From: Litorimonas cladophorae
GTDB taxonomy: Bacteria > Pseudomonadota > Alphaproteobacteria > Caulobacterales > Maricaulaceae
Assembly (NCBI RefSeq): GCF_014652455.1
Contig: NZ_BMYV01000002.1
Span: 835,075-899,074 of the forward strand
Reading direction: 5' to 3'
Length of the DNA: 64,000 bases
Both the position numbers and the translations under genes were made by a program. Every line of letters starts with the position of its first letter. Within the stretch, counting starts at the first letter, position 1. Under the pieces are notes generated by a model. The model had not been told where the DNA came from, searched no databases, and saw only the letters and a list, made by a program, of their open reading frames with translations. This document shows, piece by piece, positions 6,543 to 58,746 of the stretch.

Positions 6543-7293
6543 GGTCATACTTGCCGGTATTATTGCCGGGGTGAGCTCGCCTGCGTTTGCCGGTGAACCC
6601 TGCCGATCGGCCAAAGATTTTGTTAGACTGGCGCAGGGTTTTTATGGTCCGTCGCCCGAACTAACGAATATTATCACACCAGAGTTGAGTATGGTTTTTC
6701 GTGGTATAAATGGACATCCCGTGCCCTCACACATACTCTTTCGCCACGAAGGGACGGAGCGCCGATTTGCCATTGTCGACGGGACTTTGGTCGGAATAGA
6801 AGAGGTGGCGAAATTCTCGAAAGACTCTGAGATGTGTCGATTGATTGCGGGAGAAATGGCTCCAGATGTAGATGGGGACACGACGGCCGCAAATTTAGTA
6901 TTCACCTTTTCGTACAAGCGCAGAGACGGCAACTTCACGATTGATGAAATCCTTGAAGGGGCCAAAGATGGCTCCAAAGTTTTAAACGGTTTAGCCCCCA
7001 GTGGATTAGGCTTTGCTGTCCCTGGGTTGAAAGCCATTGTAGTGACCCCCGCCGAAGGGAAAACGGACTTGCCCAGTGTTAATTTTTCTCGAAAGGGTAA
7101 AGCTGTTTCCATACCAATCTCTAAAAGTGGAACCGCGCAATTTTTGAGATTAAAGGACATTCGCGCCGCGAAAGCCGACACATTACAGATCGAAGGTGAT
7201 TACAAAATGGTCGCAACTTTCAAATTTGACCCGGATGACATGGCGAAAGAAGAGGCTGCGCGTCTGGCCAAAGTTACAGAGAGCGAAAACTGA
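6532..7293 (+). CDS. Exported protein of unknown function, second of the tandem paralogous pair
   Basis: A 253-residue protein with signal peptide (KKV-type start, hydrophobic core, cleavage near PAFA-GEPC). The mature part starts with a Cys and has a second Cys near residue 100. The C-terminal half aligns by eye with the preceding protein (ILEGAKDGSK against ELEKGAKDGKK; LKDIRAAKADTLQIEGDYK against LDDIQALQASKLIVRGGAY). The start at 6532 is inside the end of the previous gene (11-base overlap), which argues for translational coupling and a joint role. No known family is recognised. Confidence 0.7.
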   Translation: MKNKVILAGIIAGVSSPAFAGEPCRSAKDFVRLAQGFYGPSPELTNIITPELSMVFRGINGHPVPSHILFRHEGTERRFAIVDGTLVGIEEVAKFSKDSEMCRLIAGEMAPDVDGDTTAANLVFTFSYKRRDGNFTIDEILEGAKDGSKVLNGLAPSGLGFAVPGLKAIVVTPAEGKTDLPSVNFSRKGKAVSIPISKSGTAQFLRLKDIRAAKADTLQIEGDYKMVATFKFDPDDMAKEEAARLAKVTESEN

Positions 7294-51474: not shown

Positions 51475-51609
51475 GGGGCTATCCTTGCCTGAAAAACTGA
51501 TCGGGTGCAATCGGCATAGCGCCTCAAAGGCTGTCACTTTCTGTGCTTATGTCGCGAGTAAGTTATCGCGGGCTTGCGCCACGGCTCGGCGCCGTATTAT
51601 CGTTGCATT

Positions 51610-53538
51610 ATGAATGATCAAACAAATGCAGGCGGCGATCCGACGATTGCGTCAAAGGCTACATCCAAACCGACCTTAGCGCCCCTGCGGGATCGTGCAT
51701 CCCGAACAATGAAAGTGCTCTGGACGGGTGTGGGCGCTTTGGCGACCCTTGGCGGCGTGATGGGTTTGTTCCAGGTCCTTTCATCGGGCAGTACCGCAAG
51801 TTCTAAAGCCAGTGCCAGTTCCCAAGATGTTTTGATGGAAATGGTCAAAAGCGGCGACATTGAAGTCGCAGACGCTGAACGTTTAGCTGAATTGCTTTAC
51901 GGTGAGAACGGCGGGGCCGCCTCAGAAGGTTTGCAAGACATCGCCAAAACCGGGACAGATCGCCAAAGAGAAGCTCTGTCTTTATTGGCTGAACGTCATA
52001 CGCGGAAAGCGGGCTTAGACCTCTTGGAGGCCGAAGCCACGACGGGGGCAGATTGGCGGCTGATTTCAGAGCTCGCAATCGCGTCCGACCCGAAGCGGTC
52101 TTTGGTTGCGGTCAAAAAGGCCATTGCGCTGGACCCTGAAGATTTCCGTGCCGTGACATTAATGTCTCAGGTGCAGGCGCGAACCGGTGATTATGCGAGC
52201 GCGCAACGCACGTCCAAAACTGCAGAACTGCTTGCCACCACTGAGCGGGAGCGTCTCATGAGTGCGCGCGCCAGTCTCAATATTCTCGTCACGGGTCGGA
52301 ACGTTTCAGAAATACCAGACGGAATTCTTCGTGTGAACACGGCTTTGACGGCCTATGCGCCAATTGTGGAGACAACGCCGCTTCCCGTTCGCTTCGAGAC
52401 AACCCAAGCGGCCGAAAATCATCCCCTTTGGTTACAAGCGTCTTCGAATGAAGCGATGGCGACCGCATCTCTTTACACGAATGAGGTCGAGGCCGCGCTA
52501 CGCTATGCCGAATTAGCCATTCTGGATTTCGAACAAATTGTAAAGCGCGTACCTTCCCAAGATATTCCAAAGATAAAACGCCGAATTGCGGGTAGCTACA
52601 ACAATCAAGTGTATGTGAAATATGCCGAAAAGGACTGGCCAGAAGTTATGCGCCTCGCGAAAGCGCAATTAGATATTTATCGAGAGATCGCAGAATCGGG
52701 TGACAAGGCAGGCCAAGCGGCTTTGCCTGGGCATTTCTCCCGATATGCCTCCTATGCAACTTATGCATCGGAACCTGATATTGTTAGATCTGCGTCCCGT
52801 CGTGCTGTGGATTTGGCCAGACGAGCCGCGGATCGTCGCCCTGATGATATCGACCTGGCGCTAGACCTTGTACAGATTGAGTTTGGACAGGTCATATCTT
52901 TGGTATCAATTGGCGATGACGTCGACCTTCAAGGTTCTCTCGATAAAATGATGACAGCTTTGGAGAACTCTCTTCGGGGACAGCCAGATAACGCTGAGAA
53001 TTCCCCGTGGAATCGCTATACGGCGAGCCTCGTTCAGCTTGTCGCAATCTCCAGACAAGATGAATTTAAAGCCCTATCCGAATTGAGCGATGGATTATTA
53101 GACAGAGCGGAAAAATTCTTGGATCAAGAGATTTTTTCGCGCCCAGAGGCCCATGATCCGCGTCACGCGCGCAACGGCCTGTATATTACAATCGGCGACC
53201 TTCAGAATAAAGATGGTGATGTCGAGGCTGCGCGTGGCTCTTATGCGCGGGCCTCAGAAGATGCGGTTGACATACCGCCAACCGAGGATGAGCCTGATGT
53301 CGTTGAACTTTCCAAGCTGGTCGCTTTGCAGCGCATTGTTGCGCTGGAAGAGGTTGGGGTGGAGCCTAAAGACCGTCCTGAATTACAGCAGGCTATCGAT
53401 TTGGCCACGCGTCTGGACAAAGCTGGGAAGCTGACGACAGGTTACCAATCCATCTTGAGCTATCTAATCGCCATACGTGACGACACAATGCCTGAGTCTC
53501 TCACCCAAACCTCAGCGGAAAAATCTGAAACTAAATAG
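51610..53538 (+). CDS. Single-pass membrane protein with TPR-like repeats
   Basis: A 642-residue protein with one transmembrane segment (about residues 37-57, LWTGVGALATLGGVMGLFQV) and a long helical region with TPR-like units, such as AVKKAIALDPEDFRAVTLMS and ARTGDYASAQRTSKTAELLA. The C-terminal 200 residues are again helical repeats. No enzyme domain. It sits on the plus strand between accD and trpA, which are usually neighbours on one strand, so it looks like an insertion in the cluster. The last base of its stop touches trpA's. Confidence 0.7.
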   Translation: MNDQTNAGGDPTIASKATSKPTLAPLRDRASRTMKVLWTGVGALATLGGVMGLFQVLSSGSTASSKASASSQDVLMEMVKSGDIEVADAERLAELLYGENGGAASEGLQDIAKTGTDRQREALSLLAERHTRKAGLDLLEAEATTGADWRLISELAIASDPKRSLVAVKKAIALDPEDFRAVTLMSQVQARTGDYASAQRTSKTAELLATTERERLMSARASLNILVTGRNVSEIPDGILRVNTALTAYAPIVETTPLPVRFETTQAAENHPLWLQASSNEAMATASLYTNEVEAALRYAELAILDFEQIVKRVPSQDIPKIKRRIAGSYNNQVYVKYAEKDWPEVMRLAKAQLDIYREIAESGDKAGQAALPGHFSRYASYATYASEPDIVRSASRRAVDLARRAADRRPDDIDLALDLVQIEFGQVISLVSIGDDVDLQGSLDKMMTALENSLRGQPDNAENSPWNRYTASLVQLVAISRQDEFKALSELSDGLLDRAEKFLDQEIFSRPEAHDPRHARNGLYITIGDLQNKDGDVEAARGSYARASEDAVDIPPTEDEPDVVELSKLVALQRIVALEEVGVEPKDRPELQQAIDLATRLDKAGKLTTGYQSILSYLIAIRDDTMPESLTQTSAEKSETK

Positions 53539-54336
53539 TTAGGTCGCGTTCCCATGCGTGGCGTCTGCTAATGTCCGGATCAACGCTAACGCAGATTCGG
53601 GTCCGTCTTCATGCAGGGTTTTGACGATGGCGGTTCCGACGACAACACCGTCGGCATCCTTGGCGACTTCGCGCGCACGTTCTGGCGTCTTAACCCCAAA
53701 CCCAACAACAACGGGCAGGTTCGCCGCCTCACGAACGCGAGCGACTTGTTCTTTGACAGACCCGGCTTGCGCAAAACTATCGCCCGTAATCCCTGTCATA
53801 GAGACATAATATACGAAGCCTTTGGTGCCCGCGACGACACGGGGCAAACGCTCTGCGTCAGTGGTGGGCGTTGCAAGGCGAATGAGAGCGAGATCGTGAA
53901 CTGCGAAAGCGTCACGCAACTCACTGTCTTCCTCAGGAGGTAGATCAACGATAATCGCACCGTCCACGCCAGCCGCTTTCGCAGCCGCGGCAAATTTGGT
54001 GTAGCCCATGTGATGCAAGGGATTGGCGTAACCCATCACAATAATAGGTGTCGTGTCATTTGTTTTGCGAAACTCCGTCGCCATTTCCAACACGCTGGTC
54101 AATGTCGTGCCAGCGGCCCGCGCGCGAATACCTGCGTTTTCAATGACCAGACCGTCGGCCATTGGGTCGGTAAAGGGAATGCCGAGCTCAATAATATCCA
54201 CGCCCGCGTCGGGCAGGGCATTGAGAAAAGCTTGGGACGTCCCGCGGTCAGGGTCACCCGCCATCATATAGGCGACAAAGGCGGCTTGGCCTTTGGCTTT
54301 GCGGTCTGCGAAAGTTTGGTCGATGCGGTGGGTCAT
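53539..54336 (-). CDS. trpA: Tryptophan synthase alpha chain
   Basis: Cleaves indole-3-glycerol phosphate to indole, which is channelled to TrpB. A 265-residue TIM barrel with the usual YMMAGDPDRG, ELGIPFTDPMADG (catalytic Glu/Asp), MGYANPLHHMG and VVGFGVKTPERA. Full length, so presumably active. Unlike nearly all trp operons it does not follow trpB: 2.2 kb intervene. The start region contains a 28-base hairpin and lacks a good Shine-Dalgarno site; a second copy of its first 29 bases occurs at 56104-56132. Confidence 0.95.
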   Translation of the reverse strand: MTHRIDQTFADRKAKGQAAFVAYMMAGDPDRGTSQAFLNALPDAGVDIIELGIPFTDPMADGLVIENAGIRARAAGTTLTSVLEMATEFRKTNDTTPIIVMGYANPLHHMGYTKFAAAAKAAGVDGAIIVDLPPEEDSELRDAFAVHDLALIRLATPTTDAERLPRVVAGTKGFVYYVSMTGITGDSFAQAGSVKEQVARVREAANLPVVVGFGVKTPERAREVAKDADGVVVGTAIVKTLHEDGPESALALIRTLADATHGNAT

Positions 54337-54338
54337 GG

Positions 54339-54366
54339 GACGAGGCCTTAAAAGCCAAGGCTCGTC
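54339..54366 (-). promoter_or_regulatory. Hairpin just before the trpA start
   Basis: GACGAG and CTCGTC outer arms with an inner CCTT/AAGG stem, one bulged base, ending 3 bases before the trpA ATG. The only AAGG that could act in ribosome binding lies inside the stem. Possible translational control or a weak terminator for genes upstream. Confidence 0.45.
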
Positions 54367-54435
54367 TTGACCAGAAAATTTAACAATTCTGGTGATATTT
54401 AAACGCCTATATTCCCAGTTTAGTAGGAGATGTTT

Positions 54436-55026
54436 TCAATCCAACTGATCGGCGTCAATTGTCCGCGTGACGGCCTTTGGCGCCGGAGAAGCTGGAATTT
54501 GCAGCGGCGTCCAATCAGGCTCCTCCAAGGGTTCGGCGTCCAGGTCTTGCGCGTAAGGCAGAGATTGCTTCGTCATCGCCATTAACCCGGGCTGCATGCC
54601 CGCGCGCAAAAGCTGTAGCTCCATTTTCAATCGGGATATTTCGAGGTCATAGAGCTGTGTACAGTCAACGCGCTTTGGTCGTTTTCCAATCGGAACAGAT
54701 ACGCGCCCATAGATCGAGACTGAGTCGCGATCAAATAGGTCATTTGACCCTATCACGCCCATATCCAGCTTAGGCCCGCCATGGCCAATTGCGGATTGGC
54801 AGGTAATTCCGGACGTGCTTTTGATGACGTCCTGACCGCTCACAAAAGCTTGCGACGGCAAGTTAAACCCATTTTGGTTGAAAGAGCTGGAAGAACTCGG
54901 AACGATTATTTGTTGGAGCCCATTTTCCTGAACGGTACCGACTATTTGTGCGGCCGACGTCAGGGGAATGAAGAGTGTAAGCAACCCTAGTCCAGTTTTA
55001 ATTTTCTGGCGATGACTTTTGCGCAT
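54436..55026 (-). CDS. Exported protein of unknown function, third gene of the pilin-like cassette
   Basis: A 196-residue protein with a signal peptide (basic start RKSHRQKIK, hydrophobic core, cleavage near TSAAQ). The mature part has a Ser-rich stretch, a middle portion with SIYGRVSVPIGKRPKRVDC, two cysteines (ITCQS and VDCTQ), then a charged helix (LYDLEISRLKMELQLLRAGM) and a Pro/Ala-rich tail. No family recognised. It overlaps the preceding gene by 40 bases, so it belongs to the same message and probably to the same exported complex. Confidence 0.65.
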   Translation of the reverse strand: MRKSHRQKIKTGLGLLTLFIPLTSAAQIVGTVQENGLQQIIVPSSSSSFNQNGFNLPSQAFVSGQDVIKSTSGITCQSAIGHGGPKLDMGVIGSNDLFDRDSVSIYGRVSVPIGKRPKRVDCTQLYDLEISRLKMELQLLRAGMQPGLMAMTKQSLPYAQDLDAEPLEEPDWTPLQIPASPAPKAVTRTIDADQLD

Positions 55027-55391
55027 GCTTCCCCCCGATAGGTAACCCCGACGCCGCGAATGCGTGGAAGTATAGAATTGCAGATATAAACCGTCCGTTG
55101 TCGTGCTCCGTCGAAGGGTAGCATCGTCGTGATCGACATCTTCGATTTTGGTCCCAGACGTGAAACCGCATTCGAAATGTAACTGGCTTCAATAGGGTTC
55201 CAGTTTTCGTCAAAAAGCTTTATCTCGCTTTTCTGTGCCTCTGCATACGTATTACCGATTTCAACTTGAGCGAGAAAGGTATCTCCGAACGAATCGACGT
55301 TCTGTGAAAGCGGCGAAATGCTTTGAGCGTGGGCGACCGAAGTGGTCGCCCAAATTAAAAGAAGACAGAGCAATGCCCAACATTGTCTCAT
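54987..55391 (-). CDS. Short protein resembling the N-terminal domain of a pilus chaperone
   Basis: A 134-residue exported protein (signal peptide, cleavage near AHAQ). The mature part has an Ig-like strand pattern: SISPLSQNVDSFGDTFLAQV, then IGNTYAEAQKSEIKLFDENW, which resembles the first domain of PapD-type chaperones. The second chaperone domain is missing. One Cys pair is near the C terminus (YICNS, GEACAKV). It overlaps the pilin-like gene by ATGA. Identity as a chaperone is a guess from the pattern and the neighbour. Confidence 0.5.
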   Translation of the reverse strand: MRQCWALLCLLLIWATTSVAHAQSISPLSQNVDSFGDTFLAQVEIGNTYAEAQKSEIKLFDENWNPIEASYISNAVSRLGPKSKMSITTMLPFDGARQRTVYICNSILPRIRGVGVTYRGEACAKVIARKLKLD

Positions 55392-55879
55392 GAGGATAGG
55401 CAGCGGACGATTGGAACCATTTGATACGTCCCAGCTTCAAACGTTCCTGTTGTTTTTGTTGCTGATGCATGCACCGAAATCGTCGTCACACCGAGGCTGA
55501 GCGCTGATGTGGTCGACCCGACGATATCGGACAAAATCGTGGAGCCAGATAAGTCGTAATCACCGGCGAATGTGACGTTGTCATCCGCGGAAGCAGGACC
55601 AATCGCAAATGATGTCGGAACAACAACTTGGATATTAGACCCTAAGCCGTTAGTGGTTACGATCGCCGTACCAGCATTTCCGCCCGATTCTTCAGAAGAT
55701 AAAATCGTCTGGTCTGGTGAAACGCCCAGTGTGCCTGGAACGCCGAGCAGAACTGCACATTGCTCTGTGATCAAGCCTGTGAAAGTGATGCCCTGATCTA
55801 CCGCCATCGCTGGCGTTGAAAGACCAAAAATCATGGTCGCTGAGATGGCAGTCGTTTTAATTCGAGAAAGTCTTTTCAT
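55388..55879 (-). CDS. Pilin-like exported protein
   Basis: A 163-residue protein with a clear signal peptide (cleavage near PAMA-VDQ). The mature 137 residues are beta-rich, Thr/Ser/Gly-heavy and nearly devoid of Lys/Arg. One cysteine lies near the N terminus (TEQCAVLL) and one near the C terminus (VRCLSS), as in fimbrial subunits and SCPU-type secreted proteins where the two form a disulphide. It leads a three-gene cassette that is inserted between trpB and trpA. Subunit identity is inference from pattern only. Confidence 0.55.
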   Translation of the reverse strand: MKRLSRIKTTAISATMIFGLSTPAMAVDQGITFTGLITEQCAVLLGVPGTLGVSPDQTILSSEESGGNAGTAIVTTNGLGSNIQVVVPTSFAIGPASADDNVTFAGDYDLSGSTILSDIVGSTTSALSLGVTTISVHASATKTTGTFEAGTYQMVPIVRCLSS

Positions 55880-56103
55880 TAGTTTTCACCTATCAAGTAT
55901 CCCAACTTGGTTGCCCACATTTACAACCATAGGGTGTTTTGATTAACAAAAAGCTTTCGACTTTAGGTAATTCCCGAGAATTTGGGGGCAGGTGCTGTAT
56001 AAATTTTCAACAAATCGGTCAGTCGTCGCCGTCTCAAATTTCGCCGCAATGGCAGAATGGGCATAATCAGGTTAAGATGGGCCCAGCCAAGTTTCAGTGC
56101 GCG

Positions 56104-56132
56104 GCGAAGGTTTGATCGATACGGTGGGTCAT
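56104..56132 (-). pseudogene. Leftover copy of the trpA 5' end
   Basis: Twenty-nine bases from an ATG at 56132 match the start of trpA (54308-54336) with three differences, all at third codon positions, so both encode MTHRIDQTF. The copy then diverges and reaches a TGA at 56094-56096. It begins one base after the stop of the gene at 56134-56580, exactly where trpA would start in a compact operon. Most likely the original trpA start, displaced when the pilin-like cassette was inserted. Confidence 0.85.
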
Positions 56133-56133
56133 A

Positions 56134-56580
56134 TTAATTCGTGCAACTTGGAGTGCTTGCCGAAAATGCAAGGAGTGTATTTGAATTTTTCAGGTTTTCT
56201 ATGGGGGAAATTTTTATCTGTTTAGCGCAATTATTGGGTGTTCGTTTTTGGTAAATTATATGGACGTGGGCAGGCGTCATAAGTGCATCTGTGGAAACAT
56301 ATTCCTCTAGAGGGGGTTCGACCTGCGTCCATCCCGCTTCGTCCAACATGAGGCCGTAAGCGACCATCTTTCCTGCTTTCTCGGCTATATTCAAACCAGT
56401 GAGTTTAACGCAGATGGCCTCTGAATTTAGTTGTTGGTTGTCGCAGGGGATCACGAGGTCATTTGTTAGAAGCGCAATGTCAGTACCTTCTACATTTATC
56501 GTTTTGGCCTTAGCGGCTTTAACACACCCTATTTGAGTGAGAGCAAAGGCTACGAAAACAGCTTTAAATACTGAGTTCAA
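56134..56580 (-). CDS. Exported protein of unknown function coupled to trpB
   Basis: A 148-residue protein with an N-terminal signal sequence ([15 protein letters not shown], a weak lipobox). The mature part has six cysteines, including the last-but-two residue, and no recognised family. It is AT-rich compared with trpB. The start is TTG: TTGA at 56577-56580 joins its start to the trpB stop, and the next ATG is far inside, so TTG is favoured. It lies between trpB and the leftover trpA start, so this gene entered the operon before or with the cassette. Confidence 0.6.
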
Positions 56581-57794
56581 CCGTCCGTACCCTCACTAAT
56601 ATGCTCACCCAACGCGTCCGCAATCGTGAAGACGTCTTTGTCGCCGCGGCCACACATGTTCATGATGATGAGACCGTCTGGACCGAGGTCCTTCGCGAGT
56701 TCTAATGTGCGCGGGATGGCGTGACTGGGTTCTAGGGCTGGCAGGATACCTTCGAGGCGCGCGCAGAGTTGGAACGCCTCAAGCGCTTCATCATCCGTCG
56801 CGCTGACATATTCTGCGCGGCCTATGTCGTGCAGGTAGGAATGTTCGGGTCCAATGCCGGGATAATCGAGACCCGCAGAAATTGAATGGGCATCAGCGAT
56901 TTGGCCATGTTCGTCTTGTAAGAGATAGGTGCGGTTCCCGTGTAGAATTCCCGGCGAACCACCCGTCAGCGACGCCGCATGTAATCCTGATTTGACGCCC
57001 TTGCCTGCGGCTTCGACACCGATGAGGCGGACCTCTTCATTGGGTACGAATTCGTGGAACAGGCCCATCGCATTTGACCCGCCGCCGATACAGGCCACCG
57101 CCGCGTCGGGTAGGCGACCTTCGGCGTCTAGGATTTGTTGCTTGGCTTCGCGGCCAATGACGGCTTGGAAATCACGGACCATAGCGGGGTAGGGATGTGG
57201 ACCCGCAACTGTACCGATGCAATAAAATGTATCGCCGACATTGGTCACCCAATCCCGCAGCGCTTCATTCATCGCGTCTTTGAGTGTCGCCGTGCCCGAG
57301 TGGACGGCGCGCACTTCGGCCCCCAGAAGGCGCATGCGGAAGACATTTGGCTTTTGGCGAACAATATCGACCGCGCCCATATAGACGATACATTCCATGC
57401 CGAGGCGGGCGGCAACGGTTGCCGTGGCGACACCATGCTGACCTGCACCTGTTTCGGCGATGATGCGTTTTTTGCCCATGCGCTTAGCCAGCAAAAGCTG
57501 ACCCATGCAATTATTGATCTTATGCGCGCCGGTGTGGTTCAACTCATCGCGTTTGAAATAAATCTTTGCGCCGCCCGTATGTTCTGTCAGGCGTTCCGCG
57601 AAATAAAGCGGGCTGGGGCGGCCCACATAATGGGCCAGAAAATAGTCTAGCTCCCGCTGAAACGCGGGATCGGCCTTGGCTTCTTCGTAAGCTTTCTCAA
57701 GCTCTAGGATTGGCGGCATTAATGTCTCGGCGACATAGCGCCCGCCAAAATCGCCAAAGCGGCCATTTTCATCTGGAAAAGTCTGATTACCCAT
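56577..57794 (-). CDS. trpB: Tryptophan synthase beta chain
   Basis: PLP enzyme that joins indole with serine to tryptophan. The 405-residue protein has Lys92 in [11 protein letters not shown] as the Schiff-base lysine, [13 protein letters not shown], and the phosphate-binding [10 protein letters not shown]. The ATG at 57794 overlaps the end of trpF by 8 bases. No trpA follows directly, so formation of the alpha2beta2 complex relies on the trpA 2.2 kb away. Confidence 0.96.
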
Positions 57795-58425
57795 TGCGAA
57801 CTGCGTCCATAAAAGCGGTGATTTTCTGCGCATCCTTTACGCCCGCAGACAACTCGACGCCAGAGGAGACATCGACAATTGGCGCACGGGTCGCAGTCAT
57901 CGCCTCCGCAACATTTTCTGGGTTCAGGCCGCCTGCCACTGCGAAGGTTTTTGGCGTGGGCGCGCGCGCGATCACATTCCAATCAATCGCGATTCCGTGC
58001 CCGCCGCGAACTTTTTCGCCTTTTGGCGGCTTGGCATCATAGAGAATGAAGTCTGCCACACCTGCGTAAGCTTCGGCGTCTTTCATATCGTCATCAGAGG
58101 CGATTCCAACCGCTTTGATGATTTTGACTTTAAAGTTTCGCGCAATTTCCGCCGTCCGCGCTGGCGTTTCGTCACCATGTAGTTGAATGTAGTCGGGCGT
58201 CATTTCATCCATAATTCGCGCAAGTAACGCGTCATCGGGGTTGACGGTAACCGCAACACGCTGCGCCGCTAAGGTTGCGGGCGCGATCGCTGCGGCCTGC
58301 GCAACAGAAAGCCGACGCTTCGATGGGCATTCGATGATGAATCCCAAAAATGCTGCGCCATTATCTAAGGCGCAACTCACGTCATCTTTGCGGGTCAATC
58401 CGCATATTTTTACGAGTGTGTTCAT
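57787..58425 (-). CDS. trpF: Phosphoribosylanthranilate isomerase
   Basis: Amadori rearrangement in tryptophan synthesis. The 212-residue TIM barrel starts [12 protein letters not shown] and contains [10 protein letters not shown] and the C-terminal DVSSGVE. The ATG at 58425 is used. First gene of trpF-trpB; its promoter should lie between here and the terminator at 58538. I see no leader peptide or attenuator. Confidence 0.94.
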
Positions 58426-58537
58426 GGACGCGCCTATGACAGGGCGCGTGCAAATAGGCAAATGTCAGACTGACGCGCCGCGCCGCAGACTTTGGTTTTT
58501 ATTCGTTGGGAAAGTAGTAGACGTTACCCGCGCATAC

Positions 58538-58568
58538 AAAAAAGGCGAGCCTTGAGGCCCGCCTTTTT
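58538..58568. terminator. Bidirectional terminator, mainly for the DUF1328 gene
   Basis: AAAAAAGGCG and CGCCTTTTT arms with an inner GCC/GGC stem. It follows the DUF1328 stop by 20 bases on the minus strand, where a T-run is present, and also has one on the plus strand. Confidence 0.85.
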
Positions 58569-58587
58569 CAAATTGGTTTTGTCTGAC

Positions 58588-58746
58588 TTAAATCTTTTTG
58601 CCAGTTAAGAAATGTACGACCAACAATACGAGAAAGATTACGAACAGGACGCCCGCGATATATTGTGCGCCGCCAGCGATGCCGCCGAACCCGAGAACCG
58701 CAGCGATAATTGCGATAATAAAAAAGATAACTGCCCAGCGTAACAT
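58588..58746 (-). CDS. DUF1328 membrane micro-protein
   Basis: A 52-residue protein, too short for many gene finders: it starts [20 protein letters not shown], continues [12 protein letters not shown] and ends in a second hydrophobic stretch before HFLTGKKI. This is the DUF1328 (YtjA) pattern, with two transmembrane helices around a GGIAG turn. GGAG lies 7 bases before the ATG. It has a strong stress-type promoter and its own terminator, so is transcribed alone. Homologues in alphaproteobacteria are often induced by general stress; function unknown. Confidence 0.92.

What the first reader, a model, noticed from the sequence alone, without database searches (positions are those of the whole stretch)
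54308..56132. trpB-trpA pair split by an insertion that left a copy of the trpA start behind
Seen: bases 56104-56132 repeat the first 29 bases of trpA (54308-54336) with three mismatches, all synonymous; the copy starts one base after the preceding gene's stop, as expected for the original trpA position, and soon meets a stop codon. The intact trpA begins 1.8 kb further on, behind three exported-protein genes. Known: trpB and trpA are almost always adjacent and coupled. Inferred: a cassette entered exactly at trpA's first codons, bringing or regenerating a second trpA 5' end. A plain target duplication would be unusually long, and the purely silent differences hint that the two ends come from different trpA alleles, i.e. 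recombination with related DNA.
Basis: partly seen in the sequence, partly recalled or inferred. Interest (0 to 1): 0.78.

Follow-up and report, generated by a model that had tools for sequence, protein, structure and literature searches.

The report
Tryptophan gene start left as scar
In this bacterium other genes separate the two tryptophan-synthase genes, and a 12-codon copy of the second gene's start lies among them, likely a scar left when DNA from a relative recombined there and added genes; three related genomes carry scars of the same kind, so such gene additions could be counted.

Summary
In detail: 56104-56132 matches the trpA start at 26 of 29 bases, far beyond chance, with three silent differences. 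In relatives the trpB-trpA gap is a hotspot: of 46 genomes with both genes on one stretch, 18 have gaps of at most 100 bp and 28 have 202-3525 bp, filled with differing genes. Truncated trpA starts ("scars") occur in 3 of 57 genomes scanned: the window's, G005 (two) and G050 of another genus. G068 has a trpB-start scar. The window and G050 scars match other species' trpA better than the intact trpA beside them; in G050 the differences are mostly silent, so that scar diverged inside a working trpA. I read the scar as a seam between two alleles of the locus: homologous recombination in trpA at one end, a non-homologous join at the other. This would add genes before trpA and leave the old start behind. 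No recombinase turned up in the 18 proteins scanned. Direction, donor and exact route are inferred; a mosaic test that seemed supportive failed its control.

The parts
56097..56132 (-). trpA-start scar: 12 codons MTHRIDQTFAAH, then TGA (56094-56096)
   Evidence: 26/29 to own trpA start; 33/36 to trpA of G016; scores 41.9 in a leave-one-out scan against 5.8-6.2 elsewhere in its stretch
53539..54336 (-). intact trpA, tryptophan synthase alpha chain
   Evidence: PF00290, E 2.2e-83
56577..57833 (-). trpB, tryptophan synthase beta chain
   Evidence: PF00291, E 1.7e-40; 94% identical to relatives' trpB
57787..58461 (-). trpF, PRA isomerase
   Evidence: PF00697, E 1.1e-43
56134..56580 (-). X148, lipoprotein-like ORF between trpB and the scar; TTG start overlaps the trpB stop
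   Evidence: no family match above cut-off; relative only in G050 among 137 family genomes
55388..55879 (-). X163, first ORF of the three-gene module after the scar
   Evidence: homologues in the same order in G015, G043 and G050 at this locus
54987..55391 (-). X134, second ORF of the module
   Evidence: homologues 42-52% identical in G015, G043, G050
54436..55026 (-). X196, third ORF of the module
   Evidence: homologues in 10 of 137 family genomes including this one
55880..56093 (-). stretch between the scar's stop and X163; holds the seam
   Evidence: nearly this stretch (from 3 nt after the scar's stop region to X163) matched none of the other fetched stretches by blastn or tblastx

Best explanation
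The 12-codon trpA start at 56097-56132 is likely a leftover seam where two versions of the trpB-trpA locus from related bacteria were joined: incoming DNA would have paired with the resident trpA at one end and been joined without homology inside the first codons of trpA at the other. The incoming trpA start, with its own upstream genes, then supplies the working copy, and the old start stays as a stub between the old upstream gene (X148) and the new module (X163-X134-X196). Shown: the stub, its allele-level difference from the resident trpA, the gene-rich hotspot, and further stubs in G005, G050 and G068. Inferred: one-ended (homology-facilitated illegitimate) recombination, that the module rather than X148 was the newcomer, that the stub has no function, and delivery by gene transfer agent or natural DNA uptake.
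For: Hotspot with varying cargo: gaps of 202-3525 bp in 28 of 46 genomes, 27 of these 28 with at least one ORF of 75 aa or more. Scars in 3 of 57 genomes, two of them in G005, scores 26-45 against background maxima of 11.6 and 13.1. A trpB-start scar in G068. Scars differ from the neighbouring intact gene and resemble other species' alleles: window 33/36 (G016) against 29/36 own; G050 92/111 against 78/111; G068 82/102 against 76/102; G050 scar against G059: 14 of 19 base differences silent, P 4e-6. The G050 seam leads straight into the leader of a gene that stands in the gap of G052, G053 and G055 without a scar. No recombinase among 18 proteins scanned. Own genome encodes a GTA protein, ComEC and DprA domains.
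Against: No donor and no relative with plain trpB-X148-trpA was found. trpA and trpB of the window both group with G008 (98/92 and 87/84), so most of trpA looks native. The mosaic signal at its 5' end is matched by scar-free genomes. For the window scar alone the silent excess is not significant against G016 (P 0.13), and G005's second scar is about as far from its own trpA (33/48) as from the best other (34/48). X148-scar-module occurs in two genera, which needs two parallel joins or transfer of the block. Why all five scars are short starts, with no trpB-end, trpA-middle or trpA-end fragment found, is not explained.
Confidence: 0.5

Rival explanations
1. The incoming fragment (cargo plus the first part of trpA) closed into a circle and entered by a single crossover inside the trpA 5' end, which duplicates that part of trpA on both sides of the cargo.
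For: In an E. coli experiment linear DNA with one-sided homology mostly gave such partial duplications of the target (PCR sign in 56 of 60 clones; 14 sequenced, 109-950 bp) rather than one-ended joins (PMC3240628, passages). It explains a duplication without loss of resident sequence.
Against: The shared stretch would be only 36-111 nt at about 70-90% identity, short for a crossover unless the scars were trimmed later.
Confidence: 0.22
2. The scar is not dead: it is an old part of an X148-scar-module block that is kept, either as a short reading frame that affects expression or as a homology handle.
For: Same order X148-like, trpA start, X163-X134-X196, trpA in G000 and in G050 of another genus; X148 relatives in only 2 of 137 genomes, both in this order.
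Against: G000 and G050 scars are less alike (27/33) than the G000 scar and trpA of its own genus (31/33) and differ in length (12 and 37 codons). The G005 scars are decayed, one without a start codon. No Rfam match and no unusual fold at the scar (z 0.85).
Confidence: 0.1
3. Plain tandem duplication inside one lineage: a segment from the upstream gene to the first trpA codons was doubled and the copies drifted apart.
For: Direct order and short start copies fit the outline.
Against: The genes before and after each scar fall in different similarity groups. The G050 scar differs from its neighbour by 33 of 111 bases but matches other species better.
Confidence: 0.06
4. A site-specific element uses the trpA start as its attachment site and restores the gene on integration.
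For: Short direct repeats at both ends of the inserted genes.
Against: No integrase in the 18 proteins scanned. Seams lie at different codons, and one lies in trpB.
Confidence: 0.03

Closest known systems
Homology-facilitated illegitimate recombination (HFIR; reported for Streptococcus pneumoniae, Acinetobacter baylyi and Pseudomonas stutzeri according to passages of PMC3240628)
   Same: One end would be homologous (trpA), the other joined without homology; foreign genes are gained.
   Different: In the laboratory the gain usually comes with a deletion of similar size and 3-10 bp of microhomology at the join (PMC3240628, passages). Here a gene start is kept in duplicate, repeatedly at trp genes, and microhomology could not be judged for lack of a donor.
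Single-crossover integration of trimmed, recircularised linear DNA (E. coli lacZ experiment in PMC3240628)
   Same: Partial duplication of a gene around foreign DNA.
   Different: Those duplications were 109-950 bp; here they are 36-111 nt and diverged.
Genes of unknown function between trpB and trpA (PMC2395257, passages: a Sargasso Sea contig, some Flavobacterium and Burkholderia)
   Same: Unrelated genes in the same gap.
   Different: The passages seen mention no leftover trpA start; here scars hint at how some of the genes were added.
Integrative elements that insert in the 5' end of a gene and restore it (recalled, not looked up)
   Same: A gene start repeated on both sides of inserted genes.
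   Different: No recombinase found; no fixed seam; more than one target gene.

Membership tests
HFIR product | One junction homologous, the other not | tested here: inconclusive
   The G050 seam joins trpA codon 37 to the leader of another gene with no evident shared stretch; the homologous side is assumed to lie in trpA. The mosaic test failed its control.
HFIR product | 3-10 bp microhomology at the non-homologous join | tested here: inconclusive
   No donor. G005's second seam shows AAAGC-GCAG in both the scar and trpA, which may simply be trpA sequence.
HFIR product | Insertion coupled with deletion of resident DNA | not testable with these tools
   No empty-site strain of the same species was found.
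Single-crossover partial duplication | Part of the target gene present on both sides of the insert | tested here: met
   at 36-111 nt much shorter than most of the laboratory cases (109-950 bp).
Site-specific integrative element | Encodes an integrase or other recombinase | tested here: not met
   Window ORFs X148, X163, X134, X196 and neighbours and ten proteins from relatives, nine of them cargo of the trpB-trpA gap and one the kinase behind the trpB scar; other cargo ORFs were not scanned.
Site-specific integrative element | Fixed attachment core | tested here: not met
   Seams at codons 12, about 15, about 17 and 37 of trpA and about 35 of trpB.
Transposon target-site duplication | Short identical repeat of fixed length and a transposase | tested here: not met
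   36-111 nt, not identical, lengths differ, no transposase in the proteins scanned.

The most novel reading that the evidence does not exclude
trpA and trpB starts act as home-made cassette joints: modules flanked by gene-start repeats are lost and regained by plain homologous recombination across species and genera, a recombinase-free cassette system that stacks genes in front of trp genes and leaves one start scar per addition.
Probability: 0.12. Interest if true: 0.75.

Novelty: new variant of a known kind. Interest (0 to 1): 0.46.

Why it matters
How single genes get slotted between the genes of a conserved operon is mostly inferred, because clean insertions leave no trace. If the reading is right, short gene-start scars mark the seams, and in G005 two of them show successive additions. 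They would let one count such events in public genomes and ask whether related DNA carried by gene transfer agents or taken up from outside is the usual vehicle.

Tried and rejected
Chance match: rejected. Regulatory RNA: no Rfam match at E 1 or better in 53400-58600; ordinary fold at the scar. Sigma-70-like promoters: 0 found in 53500-58600 where shuffles give 4.7, uninformative. Extra partial trpA hits in G120 and G132 are contig ends carrying the same gene (identical 138 nt in G120, strain variants in G132) and were dropped before counting. G042 was left out of the scar scan because its contig starts inside trpA. The partial hits G075 and G128 and the cut gene of G133 were not fetched.

Mosaic test for a foreign 5' end of the window's trpA looked good, but scar-free genomes gave breaks of the same strength or stronger (G011 3.5e-6, G054 1.2e-6 against G000 5.8e-6, G050 5.3e-4), so I do not use it. 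In G050, identity to G052 is higher in the first 360 nt of trpA than later, but permutation p was 0.03-0.27.

Shared ACC at codon 8 in three of the four trpA scars (9 of 47 Thr codons there are ACC in working genes) was found after the fact and is not used. A likeness of the first residues of a G003 cargo protein to a trpA start scored below background and was dropped. One reverse-strand hit inside trpA of G119 to the trpB start profile (35.9) is unexplained and taken as chance.

A scan of 465 ORFs of at least 120 aa in the window and the other 57 oriented stretches, 40 residues from start, end and middle, found as partial matches 2 starts (G050 trpA, G068 trpB), 3 ends (two from one pair of similar genes in G011, one X134 tail in G050) and 2 middles. 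It did not pick up the 12-17 codon scars. The search for homologous proteins for X134 returned none, and for X148 only the window's own protein.

Full report
What is there. On the minus strand the order is trpF (57787-58461), trpB (56577-57833), a 148-aa lipoprotein-like ORF X148 (56134-56580), the trpA-start copy (56097-56132), X163, X134, X196 (55879 down to 54436), trpA (53539-54336), and, beyond a convergent TPR-like gene (51574-53538, plus strand), accD and folC (the names accD, folC and rpoN are recalled from the sequences). The copy matches trpA at 26 of 29 bases with three silent differences, which no shuffle approached. It starts one base after the X148 stop and ends at TGA after 12 codons.

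Setting. The window lies in genome G000 (3.02 Mb in 9 contigs, completeness 100). Among records with names, two of the closest trpA matches are uncultured Caulobacterales bacteria and the third is Robiginitomaculum antarcticum (Alphaproteobacteria, Maricaulales, Robiginitomaculaceae). A family-wide search found trpA in 129 of 137 genomes. I fetched stretches for 58 of those 129: the window's genus, genera with the best trpA matches, and G020. The other 71 were not examined for gene order. In 46 of the 58, trpB and trpA lie on one fetched stretch: 18 have a gap of 100 bp or less (often a 4-bp overlap) and 28 have 202-3525 bp; 27 of these 28 hold at least one ORF of 75 aa or more. Cargo differs between species: DUF418 and Sel1 proteins, a molybdopterin oxidoreductase, a beta-lactamase-family protein, a histidine kinase and many small proteins without a Pfam match. 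In 8 of 10 genomes shown, the first cargo ORF can begin at a GTG or TTG overlapping the trpB stop, the place where trpA itself starts in compact genomes. So this gap is occupied by different genes in many relatives, and the window shows one instance.

Scars. A leave-one-out scan for trpA starts in 57 genomes (G042 left out; 46 with the whole gap, 11 with part of it) found best scores of 28-42 in G000, G005 and G050 against a largest score elsewhere of 13.1. G005 holds two scars: one before a DUF418 gene at the contig's edge, start codon lost, about 17 codons; and one after a Sel1 gene, where about 15 codons run into the frame of a lipoprotein-like ORF. G050, of another genus, has an X148-like gene, a 37-codon trpA start, a small lipoprotein-like gene, X163, X134, X196 and trpA. 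G068 has the first 35 or so codons of trpB about 1.5 kb before the intact trpB, with a reversed histidine kinase gene between. A TrpB-start search of 137 genomes (122 with a match) showed such an extra start only in G068; G108 has a contig-edge piece (residues 42-69), and G074 and G136 have a second long match each. Profiles of trpB ends, trpA ends and the trpA middle gave no extra copies that are not, by position, the genome's own gene in shifted register or at a contig edge.

Whose alleles. The window scar is closest to the trpA of G016 (33/36) and further from its own trpA (29/36). The G050 scar matches G054, G059 and G055 at 92/111 and its own trpA at 78/111. The first G005 scar matches G013 at 41/51 and its own at 38/51; the second hardly decides (34/48 and 33/48). 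The G068 scar matches G074 at 82/102 and its own trpB at 76/102. In G050, 14 of 19 base differences from G059 are silent where 23% would be by chance (P 4e-6), so that scar diverged while part of a working gene and became a scar late. The G005 scars carry 6 and 10 replacement differences from their nearest relatives and look like decaying leftovers. For the window scar the numbers are too small (2 silent and 1 replacement against G016). The G000 and G050 scars are less alike (27/33) than the G000 scar and the trpA of its own genus (31/33), which speaks against one ancient scar inherited by both.

Seams. In G050 the trpA start runs straight into the leader of a small lipoprotein-like gene with a GGGAAC box (EcfG-type promoter and entericidin-like product, labels recalled). 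The same gene and leader stand upstream of trpA in G052, G053 and G055, where no scar was found. The window's sequence after the scar matches none of the other fetched stretches. No transposase or integrase was found in 18 proteins scanned.

Mechanism. The simplest account is that a fragment carrying upstream genes plus trpA from a relative recombined with the resident trpA at one end and was joined without homology at the other, inside the first trpA codons. A join there keeps both the upstream gene and a full trpA; a join further upstream would cut into the old cargo. This is the HFIR class. A closely related route, a trimmed fragment that closes to a circle and enters by single crossover, duplicates part of the target and was the commoner outcome in an E. 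coli experiment (PMC3240628, passages). I cannot separate the two. The genome encodes a gene-transfer-agent protein (PF13547), a ComEC-type (PF03772) and a DprA (PF02481) domain; the last two are also found in most control genomes. GTAs package about 5-15 kb of host DNA for transfer to related cells (abstract of PMC9632790 as listed). Delivery by this route is inference.

Results against. Trees put the window's trpA and trpB with the same relative G008 (98/92 and 87/84 support; G005 has no trpB here), so the bulk of trpA looks native. A mosaic signal at the 5' end is matched by scar-free genomes. The recurrence of X148-scar-module in two genera, with X148 relatives in only 2 of 137 genomes, is awkward: it means two parallel joins, transfer of the block, or a scar kept for a reason. 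The shortness of all scars is not explained.

Print. Genes of unknown function between trpB and trpA have been noted before (PMC2395257, passages). Among the papers listed by my searches (titles and abstract starts only, apart from the two papers named) none announces truncated gene starts left at such insertions; the library holds open-licence papers only, and the lists were capped.

Noticed in passing
window 51574-53538 (+): A convergent TPR-like gene sits between trpA and accD. Homologues sit in the same place in G009 (61%) and G010 (44%), and weaker ones (28-30%) lie downstream of trpA in G014, G007 and G012: a second variable spot beside trpA.
   Followed up: no
window 54337-54366 (-): A stable predicted hairpin (GACGAGCCTT...AAGGCCTCGTC) ends a few bases before the trpA start codon; the 117-nt stretch folds better than most shuffles (z -2.1, 9 of 200 as good). 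It could affect trpA translation.
   Followed up: partly
L141 (G068), oriented 2424-2534: trpB-start scar of about 35 codons about 1.5 kb before the intact trpB, followed by the 3' end of a reversed histidine kinase gene.
   Followed up: partly
L131 (G050), oriented 7045-7137: A 31-residue stretch like the X134 C-terminus (45% identity) lies shortly before trpA, inside the tail of the long X196 homologue: perhaps an end-type leftover of another module copy.
   Followed up: no
X196 homologues, L170-L175: X196 relatives occur in 10 of 137 family genomes: 4 in the trpB-trpA gap (G000, G015, G043, G050) and 6 elsewhere, there too with similar neighbouring small ORFs in several.
   Followed up: partly
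contig ends in G002, G005, G009, G012, G120: Draft assemblies break within 150 bp before a trpA start or scar, as might be expected if strains in a sample differ at this spot.
   Followed up: no
G000:C1:97274-98140: A GTA_TIM domain (PF13547, E 2.7e-130) in a long open frame points to a gene transfer agent in this genome; of 14 control genomes only Caulobacter vibrioides has it.
   Followed up: no
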